Source: a virus. Taken from it: a stretch of 64,000 nt of DNA. The position numbers were made by a program, and so were the translations under genes. A model generated the notes under the pieces. It was given only the letters and a program-made list of their open reading frames with translations, made no database searches and was not told where the DNA came from. The stretch lies in the IMG/VR virus record IMGVR_UViG_3300046714_000236, positions 30,230-94,229 of that record; one strand, 5' to 3'. Positions 3,933 through 34,675 of this stretch are shown one piece after another (the first letter of the stretch is position 1; each line of letters begins with the position of its first letter).

Positions 3933-3955
3933 CGACCGACATCGATGTCGGTCGG
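3932..3955. repeat. Dispersed palindrome, copy 1
   Basis: A 24-bp perfect palindrome, CCG-ACCGACATCGATGTCGGT-CGG, in the gap between the RNA-like element and the 92-residue gene. Confidence 0.9.
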
Positions 3956-5856: not shown

Positions 5857-5867
5857 GAGGATGCCGC
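5857..5867 (-). promoter_or_regulatory. GCGGCATCCTC intercistronic leader
   Basis: GCGGCATCCTC, then GGGGC, then ATG at 5851. It directly follows the palindrome core, with no Shine-Dalgarno. Confidence 0.5.
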
Positions 5868-19950: not shown

Positions 19951-21354
19951 TCAGGAGCCGAGCGCGAACTCCAACATGAGCGACCGCTTCACGATCTGCG
20001 GGCCGCCCGAGCTGATGTCGGTCGGGATCGGGAAGCCACCCGTGTAGCTCCACGTGCACGACACGATGTCTTGCGTCCGGTTGACCGGGCTCCGAAGGAT
20101 CAGCGAGATGCGATCCGTCTTCACTTCGATCCCTTGGTTCGTGATGTTGAAGCCGCCGATCTTGCCGGTGACTCCCGCTTCACTCACGTAGCGCTTCTCG
20201 TCGAGCCAGCGCTCGTAGATCGCACCGCGCCCCGTGATGACGACGCGACCGACGCGAACGCCGGTGTAGTTCACCACCTCGGCGTTGATGCCCTTCGCGA
20301 ACTTCGCGCTGCCCGCCGTCGTGATGAGCGCGCCCGAGTTCGAGTCGTCCGGCGTCTCGTTGTTGAGGAAGAACGCGATCCCCGCGCCCGTCCCGATGAA
20401 CGCCGACTGATACTGAATCGAGTCGGGACGCCCTTGGTTCAGGCGCTGCATCACCTGATCGGTGAAGATCTGGCCGTTGCCCTCGGGGCTGATGTGCGCG
20501 TGAAAAAACCCGTCTTCGTGTGGGAACACGTTGTTTTGACGGAGCTTGTTCGTCGCGTTGATGAAGTCCTGGTACTGCAGGATGTCGTTCGCCTGCAGTG
20601 CATCGACTGACGTGCCGCCACCGGCGCGCATGATGATCGGGCGCGTGCTCGCGAGGACCGAGCTACGGATCGCCACGCCTGCGCCGACAGTGCTGTCGAG
20701 CGCGAGCGTACCGGGACCGAGCGGGACCGCGGGATCGTACGGCGTCGCGCCGATCACGTTCAGGCTGATCGGCGTGGTGCCGCTCATGAGCGTGATGGGG
20801 AGCGGTGCCGCCGTCGAGACGGGCGTCGGGCGCACGGTCGTACCGCGCGTGATGACGCTCGTGAACCCGTTGAGGCTCGCGACCTGAAGGAACGTGTCAC
20901 CCGTGAGCGCGGCGACGATGAGCGCCGTCGAGCCCTGAAGGTACGCGGTGCAGAGCGCGTTCCTCGGGATGCGGTTCAGCGACTGCCCCGCCTGAAGGCC
21001 GAGCTGCTGAATGCTCCGGAGGAAGATGTCGCTGTTCGCGACCGCGTTCGTCGGCATGTCGACGTCGATCGTGCCGATGTAGCGATCGAGGCGAGCAGTC
21101 CATTGCTCCCACGTGAGCGCTTGCGGCTCGGGGTCGACACCGGGCACCGCGGGATCCGTGATCGGATCGAGCAGGCCGGCGCGAGTCATGAGGATTTCCT
21201 GGCCGGTGTTGCCCTGCCACTCTTCCTCTTGCGCTTCGCCCCTGAAGAGCATCGCGGGGAAGAGCCCATCGTGGAACGCGCGCTCCAGTAGGCCAGTCTG
21301 AACGAGGTTCAGGATCGTCGGAGGTACTCCGAGAACGATGCCGTTGGTCTCCAT
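19951..21354 (-). CDS. Major capsid protein
   Basis: A 467-residue coat candidate directly after the scaffold gene. The N-terminus has 'LVQTGLLERAFHDGLFPAML', and the pattern around residues 90-130 (helix 'VANSDIFLRSIQQLGLQAGQ') is typical of HK97-fold coats of the P22/N4 coat-like groups. The rest is a beta-rich A- and P-domain. Its leader (21355-21572) carries an inverted repeat over the ribosome site, a 12-bp hairpin and palindrome copy 5, suggesting regulated synthesis. Assignment rests on size, order and profile. Confidence 0.7.
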   Translation of the reverse strand: METNGIVLGVPPTILNLVQTGLLERAFHDGLFPAMLFRGEAQEEEWQGNTGQEILMTRAGLLDPITDPAVPGVDPEPQALTWEQWTARLDRYIGTIDVDMPTNAVANSDIFLRSIQQLGLQAGQSLNRIPRNALCTAYLQGSTALIVAALTGDTFLQVASLNGFTSVITRGTTVRPTPVSTAAPLPITLMSGTTPISLNVIGATPYDPAVPLGPGTLALDSTVGAGVAIRSSVLASTRPIIMRAGGGTSVDALQANDILQYQDFINATNKLRQNNVFPHEDGFFHAHISPEGNGQIFTDQVMQRLNQGRPDSIQYQSAFIGTGAGIAFFLNNETPDDSNSGALITTAGSAKFAKGINAEVVNYTGVRVGRVVITGRGAIYERWLDEKRYVSEAGVTGKIGGFNITNQGIEVKTDRISLILRSPVNRTQDIVSCTWSYTGGFPIPTDISSGGPQIVKRSLMLEFALGS

Positions 21355-21572: not shown

Positions 21573-22472
21573 CTACCAGCTTTTTTTCATGCCCTGGCGG
21601 TTCATGTACTCCTTCAGCTGCTTGTCGTTCATCGAGTTCGGGAGCCCGGGACGCGGCGTCAAACCCGCGAGCGGATCGGGCGCCGCGGGAGCGGCCGCAA
21701 CCTTCGGCGGGACCGGCTGCTTGCCGTTCGTCGCTGGCGTTCGCACGGGAGGCTTCGGCGCCGCCGCGGGAGCTGCAGCCGCGGGGGGAGCGGTGAGCTC
21801 AGCGGGAGGCGCGCCCGTCGGTGCCTCGACCAGTTCCTGATTCTCCTTCGCGTACTTCGCGAGCCACGCGTTGATCGCAGCGCGTCCGAACTTCCCTTGC
21901 TCCGTCTTCGTGAGCTTCGCGTAGTGCTGCGCCATCTGATCGTTCACGAACGGCACGAACTTCTCTTTGAACTTGTGCGATGCGACGAGCGCGCGCACCT
22001 CGGCGTTCTGCTTCTGCGCAAGCGTCTGCGTCTTCTGATCTTCGAGCTGTGCGGTGAGCTCTGCGATCTTCGTCGTCGCCTTCTGCAGATCGGCCTTCAG
22101 CTGATCGATCTCCGTCATCTCGGAGCGCTTGCGCGCTTCTGATTCCTCACGAAGGCGCGTGAGCTCTTCCGCGTCCGCTTGCCGCTTGACCCTGAGCTTC
22201 TCGACTTCCGCCGGATCGTCCGTGCCGAACTCGGCCTTCAGGAGTCGCTTGCGCTCTGCCTCGCGTTCCTTCCGCTTCACATCCGAGATCGCTTCTTCCG
22301 GCACGGGGCTACCGCCGCGACCGAGCACGGGCGCAACGGGTTCGACGGGAGCGGGCTCGATGGGTGGAGGCGCGGGAGGCGCGACCGCTACGGGCGCCGC
22401 AGGGGGCACGACGATCGCGGGAGGCGGCATCGGGGGAGCTGGGTTGACGGGTGCGACGGCAGGTTCTGTCAT
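21573..22472 (-). CDS. Capsid scaffolding protein
   Basis: A 299-residue protein: Pro/Ala-rich N-terminus (about 1-55), a long charged coiled coil (about 62-165, e.g. 'LTRLREESEARKRSEMTEID'), a helical region, a second Ala/Pro-rich linker, and a C-terminal helix 'LKEYMNRQGMKKSW' with basic residues, as scaffolds use to bind coat. It lies directly before the coat gene. AGGAG ribosome site. Scaffold would be lost on capsid maturation. Confidence 0.7.
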   Translation of the reverse strand: MTEPAVAPVNPAPPMPPPAIVVPPAAPVAVAPPAPPPIEPAPVEPVAPVLGRGGSPVPEEAISDVKRKEREAERKRLLKAEFGTDDPAEVEKLRVKRQADAEELTRLREESEARKRSEMTEIDQLKADLQKATTKIAELTAQLEDQKTQTLAQKQNAEVRALVASHKFKEKFVPFVNDQMAQHYAKLTKTEQGKFGRAAINAWLAKYAKENQELVEAPTGAPPAELTAPPAAAAPAAAPKPPVRTPATNGKQPVPPKVAAAPAAPDPLAGLTPRPGLPNSMNDKQLKEYMNRQGMKKSW

Positions 22473-22554: not shown

Positions 22555-23235
22555 TTAGAGCAGCGTGCGATCTGCGGAAAGGATCGTGTTCAGATCCTTG
22601 TCCGTCGCGATGAGGAGCGTGAGCGTCGCGCGCGTCACGGCATCGGCCACCGCGAAGAGCACCTTGTCGTGCGCCACTTTGAGAAGCGCCTTCCCCGTTG
22701 CCGGCTTGCTGTCCGACGGCAGGAGGATGTGCATCTGCCCCGTGAGCGTTCCGACGAGTGACTCGGCTGCGAGCAGGTACACGACGCCGCGCGCCGTGAG
22801 TGCGGCCGGAATGTCGAACGTGTCCGCCGTGCCCGAGACGTTGAGCGTGAGCTCCACGACATCGCCGCGCGCGGGCAGGAACGTCACATCCACGTCCGTG
22901 GTGTCCGCCGTGGGCGCGAACATGAGATCGCCGTTCGGGCTGATCCCGATGTGACCCGCCGCCGGTGCGGTCTCGGTGTAGCCGTCGATCGTGAACTCGC
23001 CCTTCGTGGTTCCCGCGCGGCTCGTCGCGCGGCTGATCACCGCGGCCTTGCCGGTGTTCGGGAGCGAGATCATCTCACTCGACGCGATGCCAGGCGCGGC
23101 CGATGCGACCGGGTTCTGCTTGCGCAGCACCTGCACCATCTGCCCGCGAAGCAGATCACCGAGCCCGAGCTTGCGGAAAAGGTCCGCGATCGATCCGAGG
23201 TTTGCGGCGTTCGCCGCGTCTTGCTGTGTTCCCAT
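22555..23235 (-). CDS. Putative head decoration / structural protein
   Basis: A 226-residue protein with a helical N-terminus (to about residue 40), then regular beta strands (Gly/Thr/Asp-rich, 'GHIGISPNGDLMFAPTADTT'). It sits in the head module between small structural genes and the scaffold. Beta-rich decoration or head-fibre proteins look like this. Not recognised by family. Confidence 0.5.
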   Translation of the reverse strand: MGTQQDAANAANLGSIADLFRKLGLGDLLRGQMVQVLRKQNPVASAAPGIASSEMISLPNTGKAAVISRATSRAGTTKGEFTIDGYTETAPAAGHIGISPNGDLMFAPTADTTDVDVTFLPARGDVVELTLNVSGTADTFDIPAALTARGVVYLLAAESLVGTLTGQMHILLPSDSKPATGKALLKVAHDKVLFAVADAVTRATLTLLIATDKDLNTILSADRTLL

Positions 23236-23333: not shown

Positions 23334-23753
23334 TCAGATGAGCCCGCACACGAAGTATTCGAGCACGCCCGATCCCTTGGCCGCCAGTGCCTTCAGGAAC
23401 TTCCCCGACTGGAACGGGATGATAAGGGGGCCGCCGTTGATCGGGATCTCCGCTTCGACGTCTCCGCCGTTGCCGTCGTCCGTCGTGACACGCACGATCA
23501 CGTCGGACCCTGATTTGAAGTACAGGAACGATCCGTGTGTGACCGTGTCATCGGCACCCACACCCTGCAGCTCAGCGAACGCGCTCGGGGAGTTCAGCGT
23601 TCGTTGAAGGATCCCCGTTGCGACGCTGTAACCGATGCCCTCCGAGCCTTGCAGGAAGGTGAGGGGGATCGTCGCGCGGATGCCAGGGAAGCCCGTGTTG
23701 ACGCCCTGAGGGGGCCCCGCGGTGAGGTTCCCCCCGATCGTGAGCTGCCCCAT
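23334..23753 (-). CDS. Small beta-rich structural protein
   Basis: A 139-residue protein of short strands and Gly/Thr-rich turns, with 'LYFKSGSDVIVRVTTDDGNG' and 'LKALAAKGSGVLEYFVCGLI'. Size, composition and head-module position fit a capsid decoration or stabilising protein. No family motif is visible. Confidence 0.5.
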   Translation of the reverse strand: MGQLTIGGNLTAGPPQGVNTGFPGIRATIPLTFLQGSEGIGYSVATGILQRTLNSPSAFAELQGVGADDTVTHGSFLYFKSGSDVIVRVTTDDGNGGDVEAEIPINGGPLIIPFQSGKFLKALAAKGSGVLEYFVCGLI

Positions 23754-24323: not shown

Positions 24324-24671
24324 CTACTTCGGCCAGGCCGGGTGCAGCTTCGGCTCCTGCAGCTCGTACAGGGTCGACCAGACGTCGGAGTACAGATGCG
24401 CGCGCGGGCGGTCCTTCTCGGCGATCCGGCTCTTGAAGTTGTCGTAGTCGATCGCTCCTGTGATGCGAAGCATCGCAGCGGCCACGACCGACTTCGAGCA
24501 AACCACCCGAAACCGATAGTCGGCATCGAGCGTTTCGCGGATCCGAATGCGCGAGCGCGCGTGTTCGAGAAACTGCTTCAAGTCTTCGCGGCGCCGTGCG
24601 CGCACGCAGAGATCCACCGAGCCGCGCTTCTGCACGATGCTCACGAAACCGCCGTCGAAAAGGATCCACAT
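24324..24671 (-). CDS. Conserved hypothetical protein, MWI...GFVSIVQK type
   Basis: A 115-residue protein starting MWILFDGGFVSIVQKRGSVD. It continues with 'VRARRREDLKQFLEHA' and 'DYRFRVVCSKSVVAAAMLRI', then D-Y-x-N-F-K. I recall this as a common small family of unknown function in bacteria and phages. ATG overlaps the upstream stop (TGATG), which sets the start and drops a shadow N-terminal extension. Confidence 0.6.
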   Translation of the reverse strand: MWILFDGGFVSIVQKRGSVDLCVRARRREDLKQFLEHARSRIRIRETLDADYRFRVVCSKSVVAAAMLRITGAIDYDNFKSRIAEKDRPRAHLYSDVWSTLYELQEPKLHPAWPK

Positions 24672-24908: not shown

Positions 24909-27902
24909 TCACCAATTGCCCAGCTTCTTCACGTACCCCCACGTCGCGGGCGGCCCGTACTTCTTCGCGTCTTCGTTCCACGTCGCGATCTGCGCCTTGG
25001 CTTCGTCGAGCGAGTCGGTGTGCATCCAGGTTCCCACCTGCTCGACGCCGTTCTTCGTGTAGAAGTAGCGCGCCGTCTTCTTCGGCTTCTTCGGCTTCGT
25101 CTCTGCAGACGTAGCCTCGACAGACTTCGGACGCGGGCCACGTCCGAAGTAGAGCGCCGATTCACCCGTCCCGTGTCCGCTCTCGACTTCTTCGAGCGTC
25201 ACGTGCAGCGTTTTGGTTCGCCCCTGCAGCCGGTGCACTTCGACGATCCGAAACTTCCGCCCTTCATCGAGCAGAACTTCATCCTCGCCATAGTTGCTCG
25301 ACTTCTGATTCACCGCGAGCCGTCCCTCGTGTTGCCCGGGTCTCATCTTGTAATGCCAGAGGATCGCATTCTGCCCCTTCGATCCGTTCTCGTGCGCGAA
25401 GCTCAGCGCGGAGCTCGGGCGCCACGACGTGCTCAACACCGACGGCAACGTGTGATGAGTGCTGTTCAACACCTCGTGAATCTGCGCGTCGGTGATCCCG
25501 TGATCACCGCGATACAGATCCGAGAACTTCGCCTCCAATTGCAGATCGTGTGCTGGTGCTAGCGGGTGCGCTTTCTCCACCGCACTCGCAGCGTCTTTGA
25601 AGCCCGCGCGCAGCGATTCGTATTCTTCCTTCCGCCGCTTGTAGAGCCCCTTGTCGTACGACGATCCATAACTGCTCTCGTTGAACTCCTTCTCCGTCTT
25701 CCGCTTCGTCGAGAGCAGCGAGTGATAGCCGCTGCCCGTGTAGTCCTTCATGACCAACATCTGATCCGGGTGCGCTTGCTCCCACGCCGCGAGCTTCCGC
25801 ATCTCCATGAAGTTGAAGTCGGACCGCGACGTGAACCCCGCGGGCTCGTTGCGATCACGATCGAGCGGCTTCGTTTCGAGCTCCGAAAACTTTCGCTCGT
25901 TCGCCGCGCCCTTCGCCGCTTTCTTCACCCGCGCCTTCACGAGCGTCTTCAGCTTCTCACTCAAAAGATCCGTCTTCTGATTGAGCATCTTCACCGTCTG
26001 CGCGTGATCGGCAGGTGAGAGCCCGGGCGCGTTGTGCTTCACGTACGCGTCCCACCCACCGCCATCGAGATCGCGGAGTTTCTTGATCGCTTTGATCTGC
26101 GCCGCGAGCCCCGTGATGTCTTCCGCTTTCGAGACGCCCGCTTCCTTCGCGACTCGCGCGTAATCCTTGTTCAGATCCGGATTGAAGAACCCTTCCCACT
26201 CGCTGATCCCCTCCATCTGCCCGAGCGTCTTTCGTCCCGCCTTCGCGCGGAAAAGGAACACGCCGCCCTTGTCGATGCGTTCCGCGCTGTGCCCCGCGCT
26301 TCCCTTCGGGATCAGAATGTTGTCGAGCCCCGAGCCCACCGCATCCCAGTTCGCGGTCAGCACGTCGGCCGCAAACCCTTTCATCACCGTCTTCGCAGCC
26401 GTCGGCGTGAGCCCCGCCGTCTTCAGCGGTTCGCCCTCGATGATCTTGCTCGCGTACGCCGTGACCTTGTCGCCCGTCTTCGGGTGCGTCGCCGTGAACA
26501 GTTCGCTCTTCACCGTGCCGAGCCCGAGATCGTCGTAGATCACATTGGCGAGATGTTCGAGCTGCGCCTGCGCCGGGTCATCGTAGAACTTCACGTAGCG
26601 ATCCACGCCGTCGGCGCCCTTGTAGAGCCCGCCTTCGTTCGAGCCCGCTTGTCCGCCGATCTTCTCGGCCATGATCACGTCCGCGCGCGGCACTTCCGGC
26701 GCGACAATCTGCGGAGGTGGCGTCGGTTCGAGCACGATCGGGGAAGCGTGCACGTGCTCAGGAGGCGGGAGCGGCCACGGTTGCCCGACCGGAGGCGGGA
26801 GCGCCGCGAGATCGGGAGGTGGCGCGGGAGGTTGTGCCCCGAGCGTGTCACCGATCAAGATCGTCGTCGGCTGCTTCACGATCTTCAGCGGCTGCACCTT
26901 GCCGAACTGATCGAGCGGTACCGTCGTCATGAGCGGTCGCGCCGGGGGCGATCCCTTCCGCCCTTCGAGCCGCCAACGAACGAGCACCTCGGCATCGGAC
27001 CGCGGCGTGAGTGACTCGGGGATCGGCCAGCTGATCCGATGAGGAACGACGACGGCACGATCGTTCGGGCGATCGGGAGGGTGCATCACCGAGCCGAACC
27101 ACGTCGCGAACATTTGCTCGGGGCGTCGGATCTCGCCGTGCACCGCGATCGAGTCCGCGCCCGTCCTGCTGTCGAACACGCAGGACAAGATCTTCACCAT
27201 GTCCCCGAGCTGCGCGTTCGCTTGGCTGATCGCGATCTCCGAACTCTTCCCGTGCGCCGCCATCACTTCGGTTCGGAGGATCCGTTCAGCCCAGTGCGCG
27301 GGAGCTCCCTGAAGAAACGGGGAAGCTTTGATCAACCGATCACGGGTTTCGTCCCATGGGGTTTGCGCGAGGAACCGCTGTTGAAGCGTGCCCTCGAAGT
27401 GTTCGACAACCTGCGCGCCGTAGCGCTGCAGGATCCCCGGCCCCTTCTTCTCATCGTATTGCAGCCGGTGCAGGAGACTCGACTCCGCGCCGTGCGTCGC
27501 GCGGTCGTAGAGCGCGGCTTCGTCGAGCTGCAGCGGTTGGTGGATCCCCTTGAACTTCGCTTGCGTGGCTCGCAGGTATTCGATCGTGCTCCCCGCGGCG
27601 AGTCCGGCCGTCTGCTTGCCGGTTTCGAGCGCCGTGCTTGTGATGCCCGCCTTCACGTCGACGAGCACCGCGCGCACTTGAGTGAGCACGCTCTGCAACT
27701 TCGCAGCGGTGAAACTCTCGGAGCCCGGGCCCTTCAAGCCCTGCGCGTGCGTGAGACGTTCGACGAGATCTTTCTCGGCGCGCTTCAGGATCGGGAGCAT
27801 CCGATCGCGCGTGAGCTTCTCCGCGAGCTCGATCGCCTTCGCGCGATTCGAGGCGAGGATCGCCGCGGGACCCTGGCCCGTGATGAGTGCAGGGACCGCC
27901 AC
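24909..27902 (-). CDS. MuF head protein fused to kinase-like and ADP-ribosyltransferase domains
   Basis: A 997-residue fusion. Residues about 20-290 match MuF/SPP1 gp7 head morphogenesis proteins: 'RILRTEVMAAHG' near 208-218 and C-V-F-D-S-R-T-G with H255 and P-P-x-R-P. A Pro-rich linker (about 355-405) leads to a kinase-like domain (412-580): G420-G425 loop, K438, N-W-D518-520, D527-N528 and I-D-K-G-G at 543. Residues about 680-905 look like an ADP-ribosyltransferase of the R-S-E class: R798 in 'DLYRGDHG', S824-T825-S826, and E873-x-E875 in Y-G-E-D-E. GTG start. Possibly packaged and delivered with DNA. Confidence 0.75.
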   Translation of the reverse strand: MAVPALITGQGPAAILASNRAKAIELAEKLTRDRMLPILKRAEKDLVERLTHAQGLKGPGSESFTAAKLQSVLTQVRAVLVDVKAGITSTALETGKQTAGLAAGSTIEYLRATQAKFKGIHQPLQLDEAALYDRATHGAESSLLHRLQYDEKKGPGILQRYGAQVVEHFEGTLQQRFLAQTPWDETRDRLIKASPFLQGAPAHWAERILRTEVMAAHGKSSEIAISQANAQLGDMVKILSCVFDSRTGADSIAVHGEIRRPEQMFATWFGSVMHPPDRPNDRAVVVPHRISWPIPESLTPRSDAEVLVRWRLEGRKGSPPARPLMTTVPLDQFGKVQPLKIVKQPTTILIGDTLGAQPPAPPPDLAALPPPVGQPWPLPPPEHVHASPIVLEPTPPPQIVAPEVPRADVIMAEKIGGQAGSNEGGLYKGADGVDRYVKFYDDPAQAQLEHLANVIYDDLGLGTVKSELFTATHPKTGDKVTAYASKIIEGEPLKTAGLTPTAAKTVMKGFAADVLTANWDAVGSGLDNILIPKGSAGHSAERIDKGGVFLFRAKAGRKTLGQMEGISEWEGFFNPDLNKDYARVAKEAGVSKAEDITGLAAQIKAIKKLRDLDGGGWDAYVKHNAPGLSPADHAQTVKMLNQKTDLLSEKLKTLVKARVKKAAKGAANERKFSELETKPLDRDRNEPAGFTSRSDFNFMEMRKLAAWEQAHPDQMLVMKDYTGSGYHSLLSTKRKTEKEFNESSYGSSYDKGLYKRRKEEYESLRAGFKDAASAVEKAHPLAPAHDLQLEAKFSDLYRGDHGITDAQIHEVLNSTHHTLPSVLSTSWRPSSALSFAHENGSKGQNAILWHYKMRPGQHEGRLAVNQKSSNYGEDEVLLDEGRKFRIVEVHRLQGRTKTLHVTLEEVESGHGTGESALYFGRGPRPKSVEATSAETKPKKPKKTARYFYTKNGVEQVGTWMHTDSLDEAKAQIATWNEDAKKYGPPATWGYVKKLGNW

Positions 27903-27914
27903 GATCGATCTCTA

Positions 27915-30122
27915 TCAGATGCCGGGAAGCTTCGGCTGCACGGGGAGTGCGGGAACGGGAGGCGCGACCGGCTTCGGCGCGAGTGCGCCCCCGAGCCCTT
28001 CGCCTTCCGCTTGGCCCTTCGCTTCCTTCTTCGCCGCGTACTCCGCAACGGTGAGATCACCGTCCGGATCGGGTCGCTTGTCCTTCGTGAGAAGCGGCCC
28101 GAGTTTGATGCTCCGCCGCGCCTCGTTCACCGTGACGATCTTCGCGACGTCGGTCGGCGTGACGAGCCCATCCTCTGCGTCTGCAAGCCCGACCGGGAGG
28201 ATCCCATCCGGACCGACATCGATGTCGGTCGGCGCGGGAGCGTTCGGATCGACGGGCCCCGCGGGAGGCGTCGCACCTGGCGGAAGCTCGTTCGGGTTCG
28301 GCACCGCGCCGCCGAACGGCGGCGTGAGACCCATCTCCAGATCGCGAGCACGAGCGGCTTCGTCCTGCACGCGTTGCCACTCCTTCTCGGGATCGCGGTT
28401 CATCATGTTCGCGATGCTCTCGACCATGCTCTGCTGACTCGCGACCGGCTTCGCTCCGATCGCCGTCGACGCACCGGCCATCGCTTGCTGGCGTTCCGCG
28501 ATCGTGGGCGGGAAGTATTCGCCCCATTCGAGCGAAAGCGAACCACTGCCAGGCTCGCGCTCGATCGTGCGCGTCTCGTCGGTCGCGTTGCCGTCCTTGT
28601 CGAGAACCGGTTCCTTCCGCGGTTCGAGATCGAGGAAGTATTCGACATCGTTCGCGGGCTCTTCGGGCTCGGTCGGGATCGCCGCCGTGTCGACGTCGTA
28701 CGTCGGGAGCGGGTCCTCGTTCAGCGCGTAGTCTTCTTCGATCGTGACCGGCGTGAGCGGCGCGCCCTGCGCCTTGCCGAGCAGACGGCGCGCGCTCCGG
28801 ATCTGATCGTTCAGAAGCCGGAGGATCCCCATGTCCCCGTAGTGTTCGCGGTACACGTCCGCGACGTTGATCATCGGCGCGTAGATCATCTTGATCGCGA
28901 CGCTGCTCGTCCCTGCCGCCGCGATCTCGTCGGGGTCGGGGATCACGCACTGCACGTCTTCGAGGATGGAGTTCTTCTGCGCCTTGATCAGTTCGAGCCC
29001 CGCCGTGATCGAGCTGCCCGAGAGTTCGAGATACTTCGCATCGCGCGGCGAATTGCTCTCGGTAACACCGGTCGCGAGCGCGTGATCGCTTCCCTTCATG
29101 AGCACCATTGCGCCCATTTCGGCGGGGGTCACACCCGGGAGCACGAGCGTCGGATCGAGGTTCTTCGCACCACCACGCGCGAGCACCGAGTTCAGAACGT
29201 CGAGCGTGTCGAGCGCCTCGAACTGCCCTTCGTAGTCCGGCTCTCCGTCGACGCTCGCCTGCTTCGCTTCGCTGTCGTTCGTGATCCAAACGAAGTGACA
29301 CCGAGCATCGTTGTGCGAGAAGCACATCGGTTCATCGCGTTCCCACGGCACGCGCTCGCCATCGTTCCGAACCGGGGTCGGTTTGAAACAGACATCCTCG
29401 TTCAGCGTCCAGTCACGCCGCACCCAGTGCTGGATCTCGACGAGCTCGCCCTTGTCGTTCTTCCCCGTCATCGGGAGCTGATAGAGCTCCATCACGTGCG
29501 ACGGGATCTTCTCGTCGAAGTTCGCCCACTGCAGCGTGTAGATCTGCGAACCGTCGTGCACGCGGTTCACCGGTTTCCCTTCGTAGAAGCACCACGAAAT
29601 CCCGACCGTGCCGCACGAGCCGCCGACGTTCCGCGCCTGCACCATGCGAACGCGGAGCTGCCCGATCTTCGCGAGCTCTTCGGCGTAGTCCTGCGTCGCG
29701 GGATCGTCGGATCGAAGTTGCGGGAATCGGTTCTGCCCGAAGAGCAGCGACGTGAAGCGCTTCGTGATCGTGCGCGCGAGTCGCTTCGGTGCGTGCGGTC
29801 TCCGTTGTTCGAGCGGCACGTAGAAGCTCGGCTGCTGTCCGATCAGCGGCTGGCTCCCCCACAGTTCCTCGTGCTGCCGAAAGCGGCCCGAGAAATCGAA
29901 CATCTTGTCGTCGTGCTGCGTGCACGTGTACCACTTCGACGCGAACCGGAGTTTCTTCGAGCGGTTCGAGTAGTAGTACGACTCCGGGTTGACGTAGTCA
30001 TCCGACGCGGGAACTGCGCTCGGTTGCGCGTGCACGTCCTCGGGTCCTGTCGTCGTCGCGCCGGGCCCGAACGCAGAGTACGTCTGCACGGGCGCCGCGT
30101 TGCCTTGACCGAAGATCCCCAT
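27915..30122 (-). CDS. Portal protein
   Basis: A 735-residue protein upstream of the MuF fusion and downstream of terminase, the usual portal position. Helix- and strand-rich body with 'RRPHAPKRLARTITKRFTSL', wing/stem-like central region, and a C-terminal 'VAKIVTVNEARRSIKLGPLL', typical of portal proteins (V-N-E-x-R ... G-L). A Pro-rich linker near residues 600-640 contains the dispersed palindrome in frame as T632-D-I-D-V-G637. TGATG-coupled to its upstream neighbour. Confidence 0.75.
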   Translation of the reverse strand: MGIFGQGNAAPVQTYSAFGPGATTTGPEDVHAQPSAVPASDDYVNPESYYYSNRSKKLRFASKWYTCTQHDDKMFDFSGRFRQHEELWGSQPLIGQQPSFYVPLEQRRPHAPKRLARTITKRFTSLLFGQNRFPQLRSDDPATQDYAEELAKIGQLRVRMVQARNVGGSCGTVGISWCFYEGKPVNRVHDGSQIYTLQWANFDEKIPSHVMELYQLPMTGKNDKGELVEIQHWVRRDWTLNEDVCFKPTPVRNDGERVPWERDEPMCFSHNDARCHFVWITNDSEAKQASVDGEPDYEGQFEALDTLDVLNSVLARGGAKNLDPTLVLPGVTPAEMGAMVLMKGSDHALATGVTESNSPRDAKYLELSGSSITAGLELIKAQKNSILEDVQCVIPDPDEIAAAGTSSVAIKMIYAPMINVADVYREHYGDMGILRLLNDQIRSARRLLGKAQGAPLTPVTIEEDYALNEDPLPTYDVDTAAIPTEPEEPANDVEYFLDLEPRKEPVLDKDGNATDETRTIEREPGSGSLSLEWGEYFPPTIAERQQAMAGASTAIGAKPVASQQSMVESIANMMNRDPEKEWQRVQDEAARARDLEMGLTPPFGGAVPNPNELPPGATPPAGPVDPNAPAPTDIDVGPDGILPVGLADAEDGLVTPTDVAKIVTVNEARRSIKLGPLLTKDKRPDPDGDLTVAEYAAKKEAKGQAEGEGLGGALAPKPVAPPVPALPVQPKLPGI
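28212..28229. repeat. Dispersed palindrome, copy 7 (inside portal gene)
   Basis: Exact 18-mer read as T-D-I-D-V-G in a Pro-rich linker, exactly codon-aligned. Confidence 0.9.
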
Positions 30123-32125: not shown

Positions 32126-33800
32126 GCAGCGAGGAAATACCAGTCGCCCCCTCAGGAGGCAATTGGGGCCCGCGCGTGATCTTCGAGAGCCGCGCGCCCT
32201 CGCGAGCGATCCACATCGCCATCATGCGATCGCCCGTATGCTTGCCCCGCTGATAGAAAAGCAGCTCGTTGATCCAGTCCTGCACCACCGGATCGACGAG
32301 TCCGTCGACGTTCGGGATGAGCCACGCGCCGTTTTCGATCTCGATGAAGATCGATTCGAGCCCGGTCTGATGATCCCACTTTCGCTTTCCAGTCGTGACA
32401 AGCGAGCGCACCGGGGTGTCGATCTTCTGTTCGAGGAGCCAGTCCTTCATCCATCCCTGAGCGCTGTTCCCCTCGACGTACGCGATCGAGTTGTACCGGG
32501 CGATGGTGTTCGCGATCCGCGTCTTCAGCTCCACGCCCGACCACTTGCCCGCTTGGATGTCGAGGATCTGCCGGAACCCGTTCGGCAGGAACGCGACGGT
32601 GAAAAGCGCCGAGAGATCGCTCTTCTTCTTTTTCGAGAACGCGGGATCGATCCCCGTCACGACCGGGAGCCCGCCCGAGTACGCGGCTTCGAGCTGCGTG
32701 ACGCCGTTCTCCTTCGCGTGCTTCTTACACTTCTCGATCCATTCGATCTTTACGTGGCTCGTCGCGTCGTCACGCACCTTCAGCGAATAGCTCTGTTGAT
32801 GCGCGAGCTCCGTCATCACGCGCCGCTGTTCCTCGATCTTCGAGCGCGGCCACACCTCGGGCCAGAGCGGGATCTCGTCGTTCCGGTCGCGCCATTCCGT
32901 GACCGAGGGATCAAGCGCGATGCCGTTCGAGCGCGCGTACTCAGGAGTGTCGTGCGCGACGAGCCGGAACCGGTCGAGCTCCCCCGGGCGCGGCTCAGTG
33001 TCCGACGGACGGATCAGATCGCTGTCGAAAGCGTCGGCGTTCTCGAACCAAATGTTTCCGTAGGCGTCCATGTTCAGGACCGCCCACCCAAGCCGCGCGA
33101 GTGCGTACGTGAGATCTCCCTTGTCGTCACTCTGCCCGCTTGGATCGCCCGGGTGCCAAGGCGCGTTAGTCACCGTGATCCGCAAGTCGCGCGCACCGCG
33201 GCGCGTGAGCACGTTGTTCTGAACCCAATTGTTCAGCTTGCGCCGCTGCTCGACGGTCGCCGTGTTCTCGCTGTTCAAAATGTCGTCGATGAGGATCCAC
33301 GTCGCGCGACCACCGAGCACGCGCCCCGTCTCGTAGCTGAGCGCCGCCATCGTCGGATCGCGCACGCTCATCCCGCGTTCGACAGTGATCGATGTCTGCG
33401 ACCATGGATCGCCTTGCTGCGATGATGGCCGGAGCTCGGGGAAGACGAGCCGCACCTCGGGGCTCTTCTCGATGTAGGAACGAACGCCGTTGACGACTTT
33501 CTTGCTCTGATCTTCCGCGGCCGAGATCACCATGATCCGTTCGGTCGGGTCGCTGCCGATCACATGCAGAAGCAGCGACATCATCCCGAACGTCTTGCTC
33601 GAACCGGTGAACGCCCGGACGACGCAATACTGGTAAAAAAGCACGAACTCGTTTTGGAGTTGTTGGTGCGCGGCGATCCGAAGCGCGGCGTTTCCCGCTT
33701 CCTCCGAGCGCATCGCGAAATCAAAAAACCGAGACTCGTTCGCGCGCGCCGCCGCCGCTCGTCGTAGTGTCGCCGTGATGAGCGGATCGGCGGAAGTCAT
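32115..33800 (-). CDS. Terminase large subunit
   Basis: A 561-residue packaging motor. ATPase: Walker A-like 'FTGSSKTFGM' (G66-T70) and Walker B 'WILIDDIL' (D172-D173). Nuclease: 'VTGIDPAF' (D385), 'AYVEGNSAQG' (E443) and 'HTGDRMMAMW' (D524) as the acidic triad. The arrangement is complete, so an active enzyme is likely. It would cut concatemeric DNA and pump it through the portal. The start overlaps the methyltransferase stop (ATGA). Confidence 0.85.
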   Translation of the reverse strand: MTSADPLITATLRRAAAARANESRFFDFAMRSEEAGNAALRIAAHQQLQNEFVLFYQYCVVRAFTGSSKTFGMMSLLLHVIGSDPTERIMVISAAEDQSKKVVNGVRSYIEKSPEVRLVFPELRPSSQQGDPWSQTSITVERGMSVRDPTMAALSYETGRVLGGRATWILIDDILNSENTATVEQRRKLNNWVQNNVLTRRGARDLRITVTNAPWHPGDPSGQSDDKGDLTYALARLGWAVLNMDAYGNIWFENADAFDSDLIRPSDTEPRPGELDRFRLVAHDTPEYARSNGIALDPSVTEWRDRNDEIPLWPEVWPRSKIEEQRRVMTELAHQQSYSLKVRDDATSHVKIEWIEKCKKHAKENGVTQLEAAYSGGLPVVTGIDPAFSKKKKSDLSALFTVAFLPNGFRQILDIQAGKWSGVELKTRIANTIARYNSIAYVEGNSAQGWMKDWLLEQKIDTPVRSLVTTGKRKWDHQTGLESIFIEIENGAWLIPNVDGLVDPVVQDWINELLFYQRGKHTGDRMMAMWIAREGARLSKITRGPQLPPEGATGISSLHAR

Positions 33801-34675
33801 GCGAGCGCGACTGCAGGGAAGAGCGGGAGCGCGCCCCGCACGGCGCGGCGAAGATCACTCCCGTTCTCTTCGGCTTTGAGAGCGAGCTTCGCCATCTTCG
33901 CCCATCCCTGCTTTCGATCTTTCTCGATACCGATAAACCGACACCCGAGCCGCAGTGCTGCGACGCCCGTCGTCCCTGCGCCACAGTAGGGATCGATCAC
34001 GAGATCCCCCGGCTCCACGACGTCTTTCAGGATGTCGATCATCAGGGGCACCGGCTTCTGCGCGGGGTGCACGCGGCTGCCTTGCTGCCCCTTCCGGTTC
34101 GCGACGATCGGGCACGTGTAGACCGCGACCTTGCCGCCACCGTTCCACCGGCGCTTTTCTCCGAGCGGCTTCACCGCGTGAAAGTAGAGAAGCTCCTCAT
34201 GCCCGGGCGCGGGTCCGTCGCCGTTGAAGTGCGGCGCGCCACCGAGCCGCACCCACGCGCCCGTCCTGAAGTAGCGGGGCATCCCCCGGATCGCCGGCCG
34301 TCCTTGTCCGAATCCGAACGCGCTCCGCCAGTCTCCCGCGCCCTCTGCATCCGAGAACGTGATCACCCACCGCGTCGCGATGAGTGCGGCTGCAGCGGAG
34401 AAGCGCCGCCGCTCCTCGGGTGTCATCGGGTCGAAGTTCAGATCCACCTTCCGCCGCTCGCGACACGACGCACCCACGACGTCAGGAAGTTGATTGCGCT
34501 TCCCCGTCTGAATGTTCGTGTGCACTTCGGCCGAGTACGGCGGATCGGTGATCACATGGACCGATTGCCCTTCGAGCGCTGGGTGCTTCGCGAGATCCGA
34601 CATGAACCCAATTCCGTCACCGTTGACGATCGCCCATCGTCGCCGGCCACGCAGCACGTCCGCAAACTTCACCAT
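33797..34675 (-). CDS. DNA methyltransferase (beta-class, DPPY)
   Basis: A 292-residue methylase. D-P-P-Y at 44-47 near the N-terminus and the AdoMet-binding 'VIDPYCGAGTTG' at about 226-237 near the C-terminus give the beta-class order. 'HPAQKPVPLM' before it is typical of N6-adenine or N4-cytosine enzymes. It may protect phage DNA or mark packaging sites, as it lies between terminase candidates. No restriction partner is visible nearby. Confidence 0.8.
   Translation of the reverse strand: MVKFADVLRGRRRWAIVNGDGIGFMSDLAKHPALEGQSVHVITDPPYSAEVHTNIQTGKRNQLPDVVGASCRERRKVDLNFDPMTPEERRRFSAAAALIATRWVITFSDAEGAGDWRSAFGFGQGRPAIRGMPRYFRTGAWVRLGGAPHFNGDGPAPGHEELLYFHAVKPLGEKRRWNGGGKVAVYTCPIVANRKGQQGSRVHPAQKPVPLMIDILKDVVEPGDLVIDPYCGAGTTGVAALRLGCRFIGIEKDRKQGWAKMAKLALKAEENGSDLRRAVRGALPLFPAVALA

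What the first reader, a model, noticed from the sequence alone, without database searches (positions are those of the whole stretch)
24909..27902. Head protein carrying kinase-like and ADP-ribosyltransferase domains
MuF head proteins are sometimes fused to toxins. Here the fusion appears to have two effector-like domains: a kinase-like fold (K438, D527-N528, D544) and an R-S-E type ART (R798, S824-T-S, E873-x-E875). Because MuF proteins are internal virion proteins, the effectors could be injected with DNA, to modify host targets or block rivals.
Basis: partly seen in the sequence, partly recalled or inferred. Interest (0 to 1): 0.8.

Follow-up and report, generated by a model that had tools for sequence, protein, structure and literature searches.

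The report
Phage head protein with two enzymes
A phage fuses a head protein, encoded next to the portal through which DNA leaves the particle, to a kinase-like enzyme and an ADP-ribosyltransferase; the same pairing recurs in many different phages, often beside one conserved small gene, so it looks like a widespread but undescribed set of host-modifying tools carried in virus particles.

Summary
The finding holds. Window 24909-27902 (-) is one uninterrupted 997-aa frame between a portal gene and the scaffold and capsid genes, with three parts. (1) A MuF-type head domain: direct Pfam hit weak (E=0.011), profile-profile comparison 91%. (2) Residues ~405-660, a kinase-like domain (AlphaFold pLDDT 96; kinase folds CtkA, PI3K, RIO1) of a family found here in 146 distinct large proteins and absent from Pfam as such. 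(3) A C-terminal R-S-E ADP-ribosyltransferase (R798, S824, E873-x-E875; window-free profile E=7e-16; fold of Vis, C3, Certhrax). Sixty of the 146 kinase proteins also carry this transferase type; at least 11 also carry MuF. One kinase+transferase relative is annotated as particle-associated. MuF-transferase fusions and multi-enzyme "polyvalent" proteins are known; this kinase family and its pairing with an R-S-E transferase were not found described in the papers searched. New here: the small gene just downstream (24324-24671, -) belongs to a family tightly linked to the kinase; all six isolate phages that encode it also encode the kinase. Packaging, injection, activity and targets are inferred, not shown.

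The parts
24909..27902 (-). Whole gene: 997-aa MuF + kinase-like + ADP-ribosyltransferase protein
   Evidence: single open frame, GTG start; full-length orthologues in L016 and L017
26703..27902 (-). Residues 1-400: MuF-type N-terminal part (MuF core about residues 165-290) and proline-rich linker (about 340-400)
   Evidence: Pfam PF04233 E=0.011; PHROG 3517 head morphogenesis E=0.0057; hhalign to clear MuF domains 90.8%, E=1.2e-6
25923..26690 (-). Residues 405-660: kinase-like domain (K438, E449, D520, N528, D544; G-S-N-x-G-G loop)
   Evidence: invariant columns in 88 sequences; AlphaFold pLDDT 96.4; Foldseek to PI3K, RIO1, CtkA
25173..25865 (-). Residues 680-910: R-S-E ADP-ribosyltransferase domain (R798, S824, E873-x-E875)
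   Evidence: window-free profile E=7e-16; profile to solved ARTs up to 2.6e-34; Foldseek to Vis, C3, Certhrax
24912..25115 (-). Residues 930-997: C-terminal tail, small predicted alpha/beta segment of unknown role
   Evidence: modelled at low-to-moderate confidence; no clear homologue in the loci fetched
24324..24671 (-). Linked small gene, about 115 aa (MWILFDGGF...), candidate partner or inhibitor of the kinase module
   Evidence: near the kinase gene in 44 of 152 loci; all 6 isolate phages with it have the kinase; reciprocal scan 26 of 51 loci
27915..30122 (-). Portal gene directly upstream
   Evidence: tblastn to annotated portal of Komagataeibacter phage phiKX2, E=4e-19; orthologue upstream of the L017 relative
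21573..22472 (-). Head scaffolding gene downstream (context)
   Evidence: PHROG 206 E=1.5e-4
19951..21354 (-). Major head protein gene downstream (context)
   Evidence: PHROG 1357 E=9.6e-12; orthologues downstream of relatives L016, L017, L018, L022
32115..33800 (-). Terminase large subunit gene upstream (context)
   Evidence: PHROG 38 E=2.5e-49

Best explanation
This is a MuF-anchored, virion-carried double effector. The N-terminal MuF part places the protein in the procapsid near the portal. A proline-rich linker then carries two enzymes: an atypical (HipA/CtkA/PI3K-like) kinase and an R-S-E mono-ADP-ribosyltransferase, probably arginine-directed because it has E-x-E. The protein leaves with the DNA, and in the new host the transferase (NAD+) and the kinase (ATP) modify host proteins early in infection, as T4 Alt does with RNA polymerase. 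The small downstream gene is a partner of the kinase module, perhaps an inhibitor or assembly helper that keeps it harmless in the producing cell. Shown here: domains, predicted folds, conserved catalytic residues, head-operon position, recurrence and gene linkage. Inferred: packaging in this phage, injection, catalysis, targets and the partner's role.
For: Portal immediately upstream, scaffold and capsid genes downstream; upstream genes of other kinase proteins most often match portal or head-morphogenesis families. Kinase fold pLDDT 96.4 and catalytic residues invariant in 88 sequences. ART profile E=7e-16 without the window, ART fold, R-S-E residues invariant or nearly so. 60 of 146 kinase proteins carry an ART and at least 11 carry MuF as well. 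Yersinia phage fHe-Yen8-01 kinase+ART protein is annotated 'phage particle associated protein'. Precedents: T4 Alt is packaged and injected (PMC5512222); Alt/VIP2 ARTs fused to MuF (PMC9503650); the MuF-ART protein Bxa ADP-ribosylates bacterial proteins (PMC11699363).
Against: No experiment on this phage. The direct MuF hit is below the Pfam cut-off and the C-x-C end typical of many MuF domains is missing. The kinase matches known kinases only at fold level (best TM about 0.5). The ART is much less conserved between orthologues (26-27% identity) than MuF (45%) or kinase (52%), so its target may vary.
Confidence: 0.6

Rival explanations
1. MuF polymorphic toxin: the C-terminal enzymes are weapons against rival bacteria or rival phages, carried by a temperate phage, and the small downstream gene is a classical immunity protein that protects lysogens.
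For: MuF-ART toxin Bxa is antibacterial and has adjacent immunity genes (PMC11699363); MuF toxins were tied to temperate phages (PMC5576092). A conserved small gene follows the effector gene here and in many relatives. Relatives also occur in bacterial genome contigs, presumably prophages. The ART diverges faster than the rest.
Against: The small gene follows the kinase whether or not an ART is present (22 of 60 with ART, 20 of 86 without, p=0.10), so it is not a dedicated ART immunity gene. No tyrosine integrase and no ADP-ribosylglycohydrolase on the 94-kb contig, though the contig may be incomplete.
Confidence: 0.2
2. The kinase acts within the particle or on the fused ART or other head proteins (assembly or maturation switch), rather than on host proteins.
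For: The kinase is present without a detectable ART in 86 of 146 proteins and lies beside portal and head genes, so it could serve the head itself.
Against: Most head operons do well without it: few of 50,697 phage records have it. It also sits in very large proteins of other build, up to about 3,400 aa, and pairs repeatedly with an enzyme that modifies host proteins.
Confidence: 0.12
3. The kinase-like and ART-like parts are catalytically dead structural leftovers.
For: Activity is untested; the long fusion could be structural.
Against: Catalytic residues of both domains are the most conserved positions across 88 kinase and 40 ART sequences, which degenerate copies would not keep.
Confidence: 0.05

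Closest known systems
MuF-ART fusion toxins (Bxa, PMC11699363; MuF-Alt/VIP2 fusions, PMC9503650; 'minor capsid and ADP-ribosyltransferase domain fusion protein' of Mycobacteroides prophages)
   Same: N-terminal MuF head domain, C-terminal R-S-E type ART, gene in the head region
   Different: A kinase-like domain stands between MuF and ART; the downstream small gene follows the kinase, not the ART, and no ADP-ribosylglycohydrolase was found. Whether Bxa's uncharacterised middle domain is related was not tested.
Polyvalent proteins of phages and conjugative elements (PMC5512222)
   Same: Several unlike enzymatic domains in one polypeptide, predicted to be packaged and injected; include protein kinases and ARTs
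   Different: Their ARTs are H-Y-D type and R-S-E ARTs are stated not to occur in genuine polyvalent proteins; their kinases are a group with conserved Gln and His features not seen among the invariant columns here
Kinase+ART proteins of about 90-kb phages (Yersinia fHe-Yen8-01, Pseudomonas Touem01 and Jeremy, Aeromonas ST4, Morganella Mecenats66)
   Same: Same kinase family (31-33% identity) followed by an R-S-E ART; same linked small gene
   Different: No MuF domain detected; proteins of 1,200-2,240 aa with other N-terminal regions; not described beyond 'ADP-ribosyltransferase' or 'hypothetical'
T4 Alt
   Same: R-S-E (Alt/VIP2 clade) ART carried in the head and injected with the DNA (PMC5512222)
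   Different: No MuF and no kinase domain reported; different gene context
HipA, CtkA and PI3K-type kinases
   Same: Fold (Foldseek E about 1e-4, TM up to 0.50); 19 of 88 members weakly match Pfam HipA_C
   Different: Sequence too far for membership; different glycine loop and N-W-D...D-N spacing; part of a head-encoded fusion

Membership tests
MuF head proteins (PF04233) | Sequence match above the curated cut-off | tested here: not met
   16.9 bits against a cut-off of 29.6
MuF head proteins (PF04233) | Homology to clear MuF domains by profile-profile comparison | tested here: met
   hhalign 90.8%, E=1.2e-6, from shallow alignments of 3 and 7 sequences
MuF head proteins (PF04233) | Gene beside the portal in the head operon | tested here: met
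   12 bases after the portal gene; scaffold and capsid genes follow
R-S-E ADP-ribosyltransferases (VIP2, C3, Vis type) | R, S-T-S and E-x-E catalytic motifs in order | tested here: met
   R798, S824-T-S, E873-x-E875; invariant or nearly so in 40 sequences
R-S-E ADP-ribosyltransferases (VIP2, C3, Vis type) | ART fold and profile homology | tested here: met
   window-free profile E=7e-16; Foldseek Vis 2.2e-8; single-sequence Pfam hit alone is below cut-off
R-S-E ADP-ribosyltransferases (VIP2, C3, Vis type) | NAD+-dependent transfer activity | not testable with these tools
   needs an assay
Protein-kinase-like superfamily (HipA/PI3K/CtkA) | Kinase fold with Lys, catalytic Asp, Asn and metal Asp | tested here: met
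   pLDDT 96.4 model, kinase folds as top hits; K438, D520, N528, D544 invariant
HipA kinases (PF07804, PF20613) | Profile match of the window domain | tested here: not met
   window domain does not match; 19 of 88 relatives match HipA_C, best E=0.0013
Polyvalent proteins (PMC5512222) | Two or more unlike enzymatic domains in one polypeptide | tested here: met
   kinase-like and ART domains in one frame
Polyvalent proteins (PMC5512222) | H-Y-D clade ART | tested here: not met
   R-S-E motifs instead; paper text
Polyvalent proteins (PMC5512222) | Packaged in the virion and injected | not testable with these tools
   a relative is annotated as particle-associated; this phage is untested
MuF polymorphic toxins (PMC5576092, PMC11699363) | Cognate immunity gene next to the toxin gene | tested here: inconclusive
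   a conserved small gene follows, but it tracks the kinase rather than the ART
MuF polymorphic toxins (PMC5576092, PMC11699363) | Carried by a temperate phage | tested here: inconclusive
   no PF00589 integrase on the 94-kb contig; completeness unknown, serine integrases not searched

The most novel reading that the evidence does not exclude
The kinase domain and the 115-aa gene downstream form a widespread, undescribed module of virion-delivered kinases with a dedicated partner (inhibitor, immunity or loading protein), onto which phages fuse ARTs and head domains, so that one particle delivers both phosphorylation and ADP-ribosylation of host targets.
Probability: 0.4. Interest if true: 0.72.

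Novelty: new variant of a known kind. Interest (0 to 1): 0.55.

Why it matters
Phages that carry enzymes in the particle can reprogramme or disarm the host before any phage gene is expressed. The literature found describes other kinase and ART types in injected multi-enzyme proteins. This family also occurs in cultured phages, including phages of Pseudomonas putida, so packaging, enzyme activity and the role of the linked small gene can be tested directly.

Tried and rejected
Direct Pfam, PHROG, NCBIfam and PDB searches with the single protein gave only weak hits; profiles of relatives were needed. A viral-contig scan with the ART alone found nothing. PDB sequence hits of the kinase profile (surface-layer protein, iota toxin Ib, Legionella LepB at E=0.14) were judged chance or too weak. 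A MuF profile from C-x-C type relatives missed the window, so profile-profile comparison was used. The small gene as a pure ART immunity gene was rejected because it occurs with and without ART; it has no informative family or structure match. Seven literature searches found no description of the MuF-kinase-ART order.

Full report
What is there. The finding names the frame 24909-27902 on the minus strand. The window is part of a 94,229-base virus record. The gene stands 12 bases after a portal gene, identified by a tblastn match to an annotated portal (E 4e-19). A terminase gene lies further upstream, and scaffold and major head protein genes lie downstream in the same direction. This is the head operon, where MuF genes are expected.

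MuF part. Residues 200-285 match Pfam MuF only weakly (E=0.011, below cut-off). Two other viral contigs (L016, L017) carry full-length orthologues whose N-terminal parts match the first 400 residues at E 1e-88 to 1e-94. Comparing the profile of these N-terminal parts with a profile of clear MuF domains gives 90.8% probability and E=1.2e-6. The C-x-C end typical of many MuF domains is absent here. I take the MuF assignment as likely, not proven.

Kinase-like part. Residues about 405-660 belong to a large family: one motif scan of viral contigs found 478 relatives (80 kept), and 66 stretches in bacterial genome contigs encode others. The model of this region is very confident (pLDDT 96.4). The best Foldseek matches among solved structures are kinases (PI3K, MAP kinases, RIO1, CtkA; E about 1e-4, best TM 0.50). 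Among viral models the best are phage proteins, two of them named ADP-ribosyltransferase, one a portal protein, and others PI3K/PI4K-domain proteins. Residues corresponding to K438, D520, N528 and D544 are invariant across 88 sequences, with a G-S-N-x-G-G loop and E449 nearly invariant. The family is not in Pfam as such: 19 of 88 members match HipA_C weakly (best 0.0013).

ART part. A profile built from relatives without the window sequence detects it at E=7e-16 and finds nothing in shuffled sequences. R798, E873 and E875 are invariant, and S824 nearly so, in 40 sequences. The profile matches solved ADP-ribosyltransferases at up to E 2.6e-34 (that profile includes the window as one of 40 rows). 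The predicted structure matches Vis, C3 and Certhrax with E between 2e-8 and 1e-6, although the model as a whole is moderate (pLDDT 74.9). E-x-E suggests an arginine target by analogy with known families (inference from general knowledge).

Recurrence. Of 146 distinct proteins with the kinase, 60 also carry this ART type, and 11 have MuF, kinase and ART together by conservative local profiles that miss divergent MuF domains such as the window's own. The ART lies after the kinase in 57 of 60. In L006 the order is clear by Pfam: MuF 8e-21 and ART 2.5e-4, just under its cut-off. Known isolates with kinase+ART include Yersinia phage fHe-Yen8-01, whose protein is annotated as particle-associated. 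Genes directly upstream of the kinase proteins most often match portal and head-morphogenesis families. Between the window protein and its two full-length orthologues the ART is only 26-27% identical, against about 45% for MuF and 52% for the kinase: the ART evolves faster or is exchanged.

A linked small gene. The next gene downstream, 24324-24671 (115 aa, beginning MWILFDGGF), belongs to a family with no informative Pfam, PHROG or PDB assignment. Homologues lie near the kinase gene in 44 of 152 loci, 36 of them downstream on the same strand within 3 kb. In 50,697 phage records it is found in six, and all six are among the 15 records with the kinase. Simple sampling would give about 2e-22, but shared descent makes that figure too strong. 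Starting instead from the small gene, 26 of 51 loci of at least 15 kb contain the kinase within about 10 kb; this scan was seeded with small proteins taken from kinase loci, which biases it somewhat. It occurs with ART-bearing and ART-less kinases alike (22 of 60 and 20 of 86). It therefore follows the kinase; a role as inhibitor, immunity or loading protein is my inference.

Mechanism and literature. MuF-ART proteins are known, and one (Bxa) has been shown to ADP-ribosylate bacterial proteins and inhibit E. coli (PMC11699363). ARTs of the Alt/VIP2 type fused to MuF are reported (PMC9503650). Multi-enzyme injected 'polyvalent' proteins are described (PMC5512222), but there the ARTs are H-Y-D type, R-S-E ARTs are said not to occur in genuine polyvalent proteins, and the kinases are described with features not seen here. 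Seven full-text searches found no paper describing this kinase family or the MuF-kinase-ART order; subscription papers are mostly not held. I therefore call it a new variant of a known kind. The best reading is a head-carried double effector that modifies host proteins at entry. The domain calls are strong; delivery and action are inferred.

Limits. E-values from local profiles refer to small databases. The contig may be incomplete, so absence of a tyrosine integrase and of ADP-ribosylglycohydrolase is weak evidence. The MuF part and the small protein were not modelled, and no coordinates were available to measure active-site geometry. Whether the uncharacterised middle domain of Bxa is related to this kinase was not tested. 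No activity was tested.

Noticed in passing
window 3935-3952, 9666, 11026, 21547, 24305, 28212, 31009, 46318, 50949, 56123, 62982 (exact 18-bp sites); near-copies at 5867, 38350, 40883: A perfect 18-bp palindrome ACCGACATCGATGTCGGT recurs 11 times in the window (none in 100 shuffles) and, with near-copies, about 19 times across the 94-kb record, mostly spaced by kilobases, in both gene gaps and genes. None of the other loci fetched up to one search has it. It could be a repressor, partition or stoperator-like site; function unknown.
   Followed up: partly
L014:7268-8011, L236:7747-8502, L015:7224-8072: In about 90-kb phages with the kinase+ART protein, a NUDIX hydrolase or nucleotide phosphatase gene lies between it and the linked small gene; it might act on ADP-ribose derivatives. 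No such gene lies between them in the window.
   Followed up: no
L186, L217, L220: Some phages encode two consecutive kinase-domain proteins, one with and one without an ART, followed by the small gene.
   Followed up: no
window 33797-34675 (-): A DNA methylase gene (N6_N4_Mtase, E=1.6e-19) lies directly upstream of the terminase gene.
   Followed up: no
window 22555-23235 (-) and 23334-23753 (-): Two genes of unknown function between the small gene and the scaffold gene have orthologues in the same place in relatives (L016, L017, L018, L022 for the first; L018, L022 for the second).
   Followed up: no
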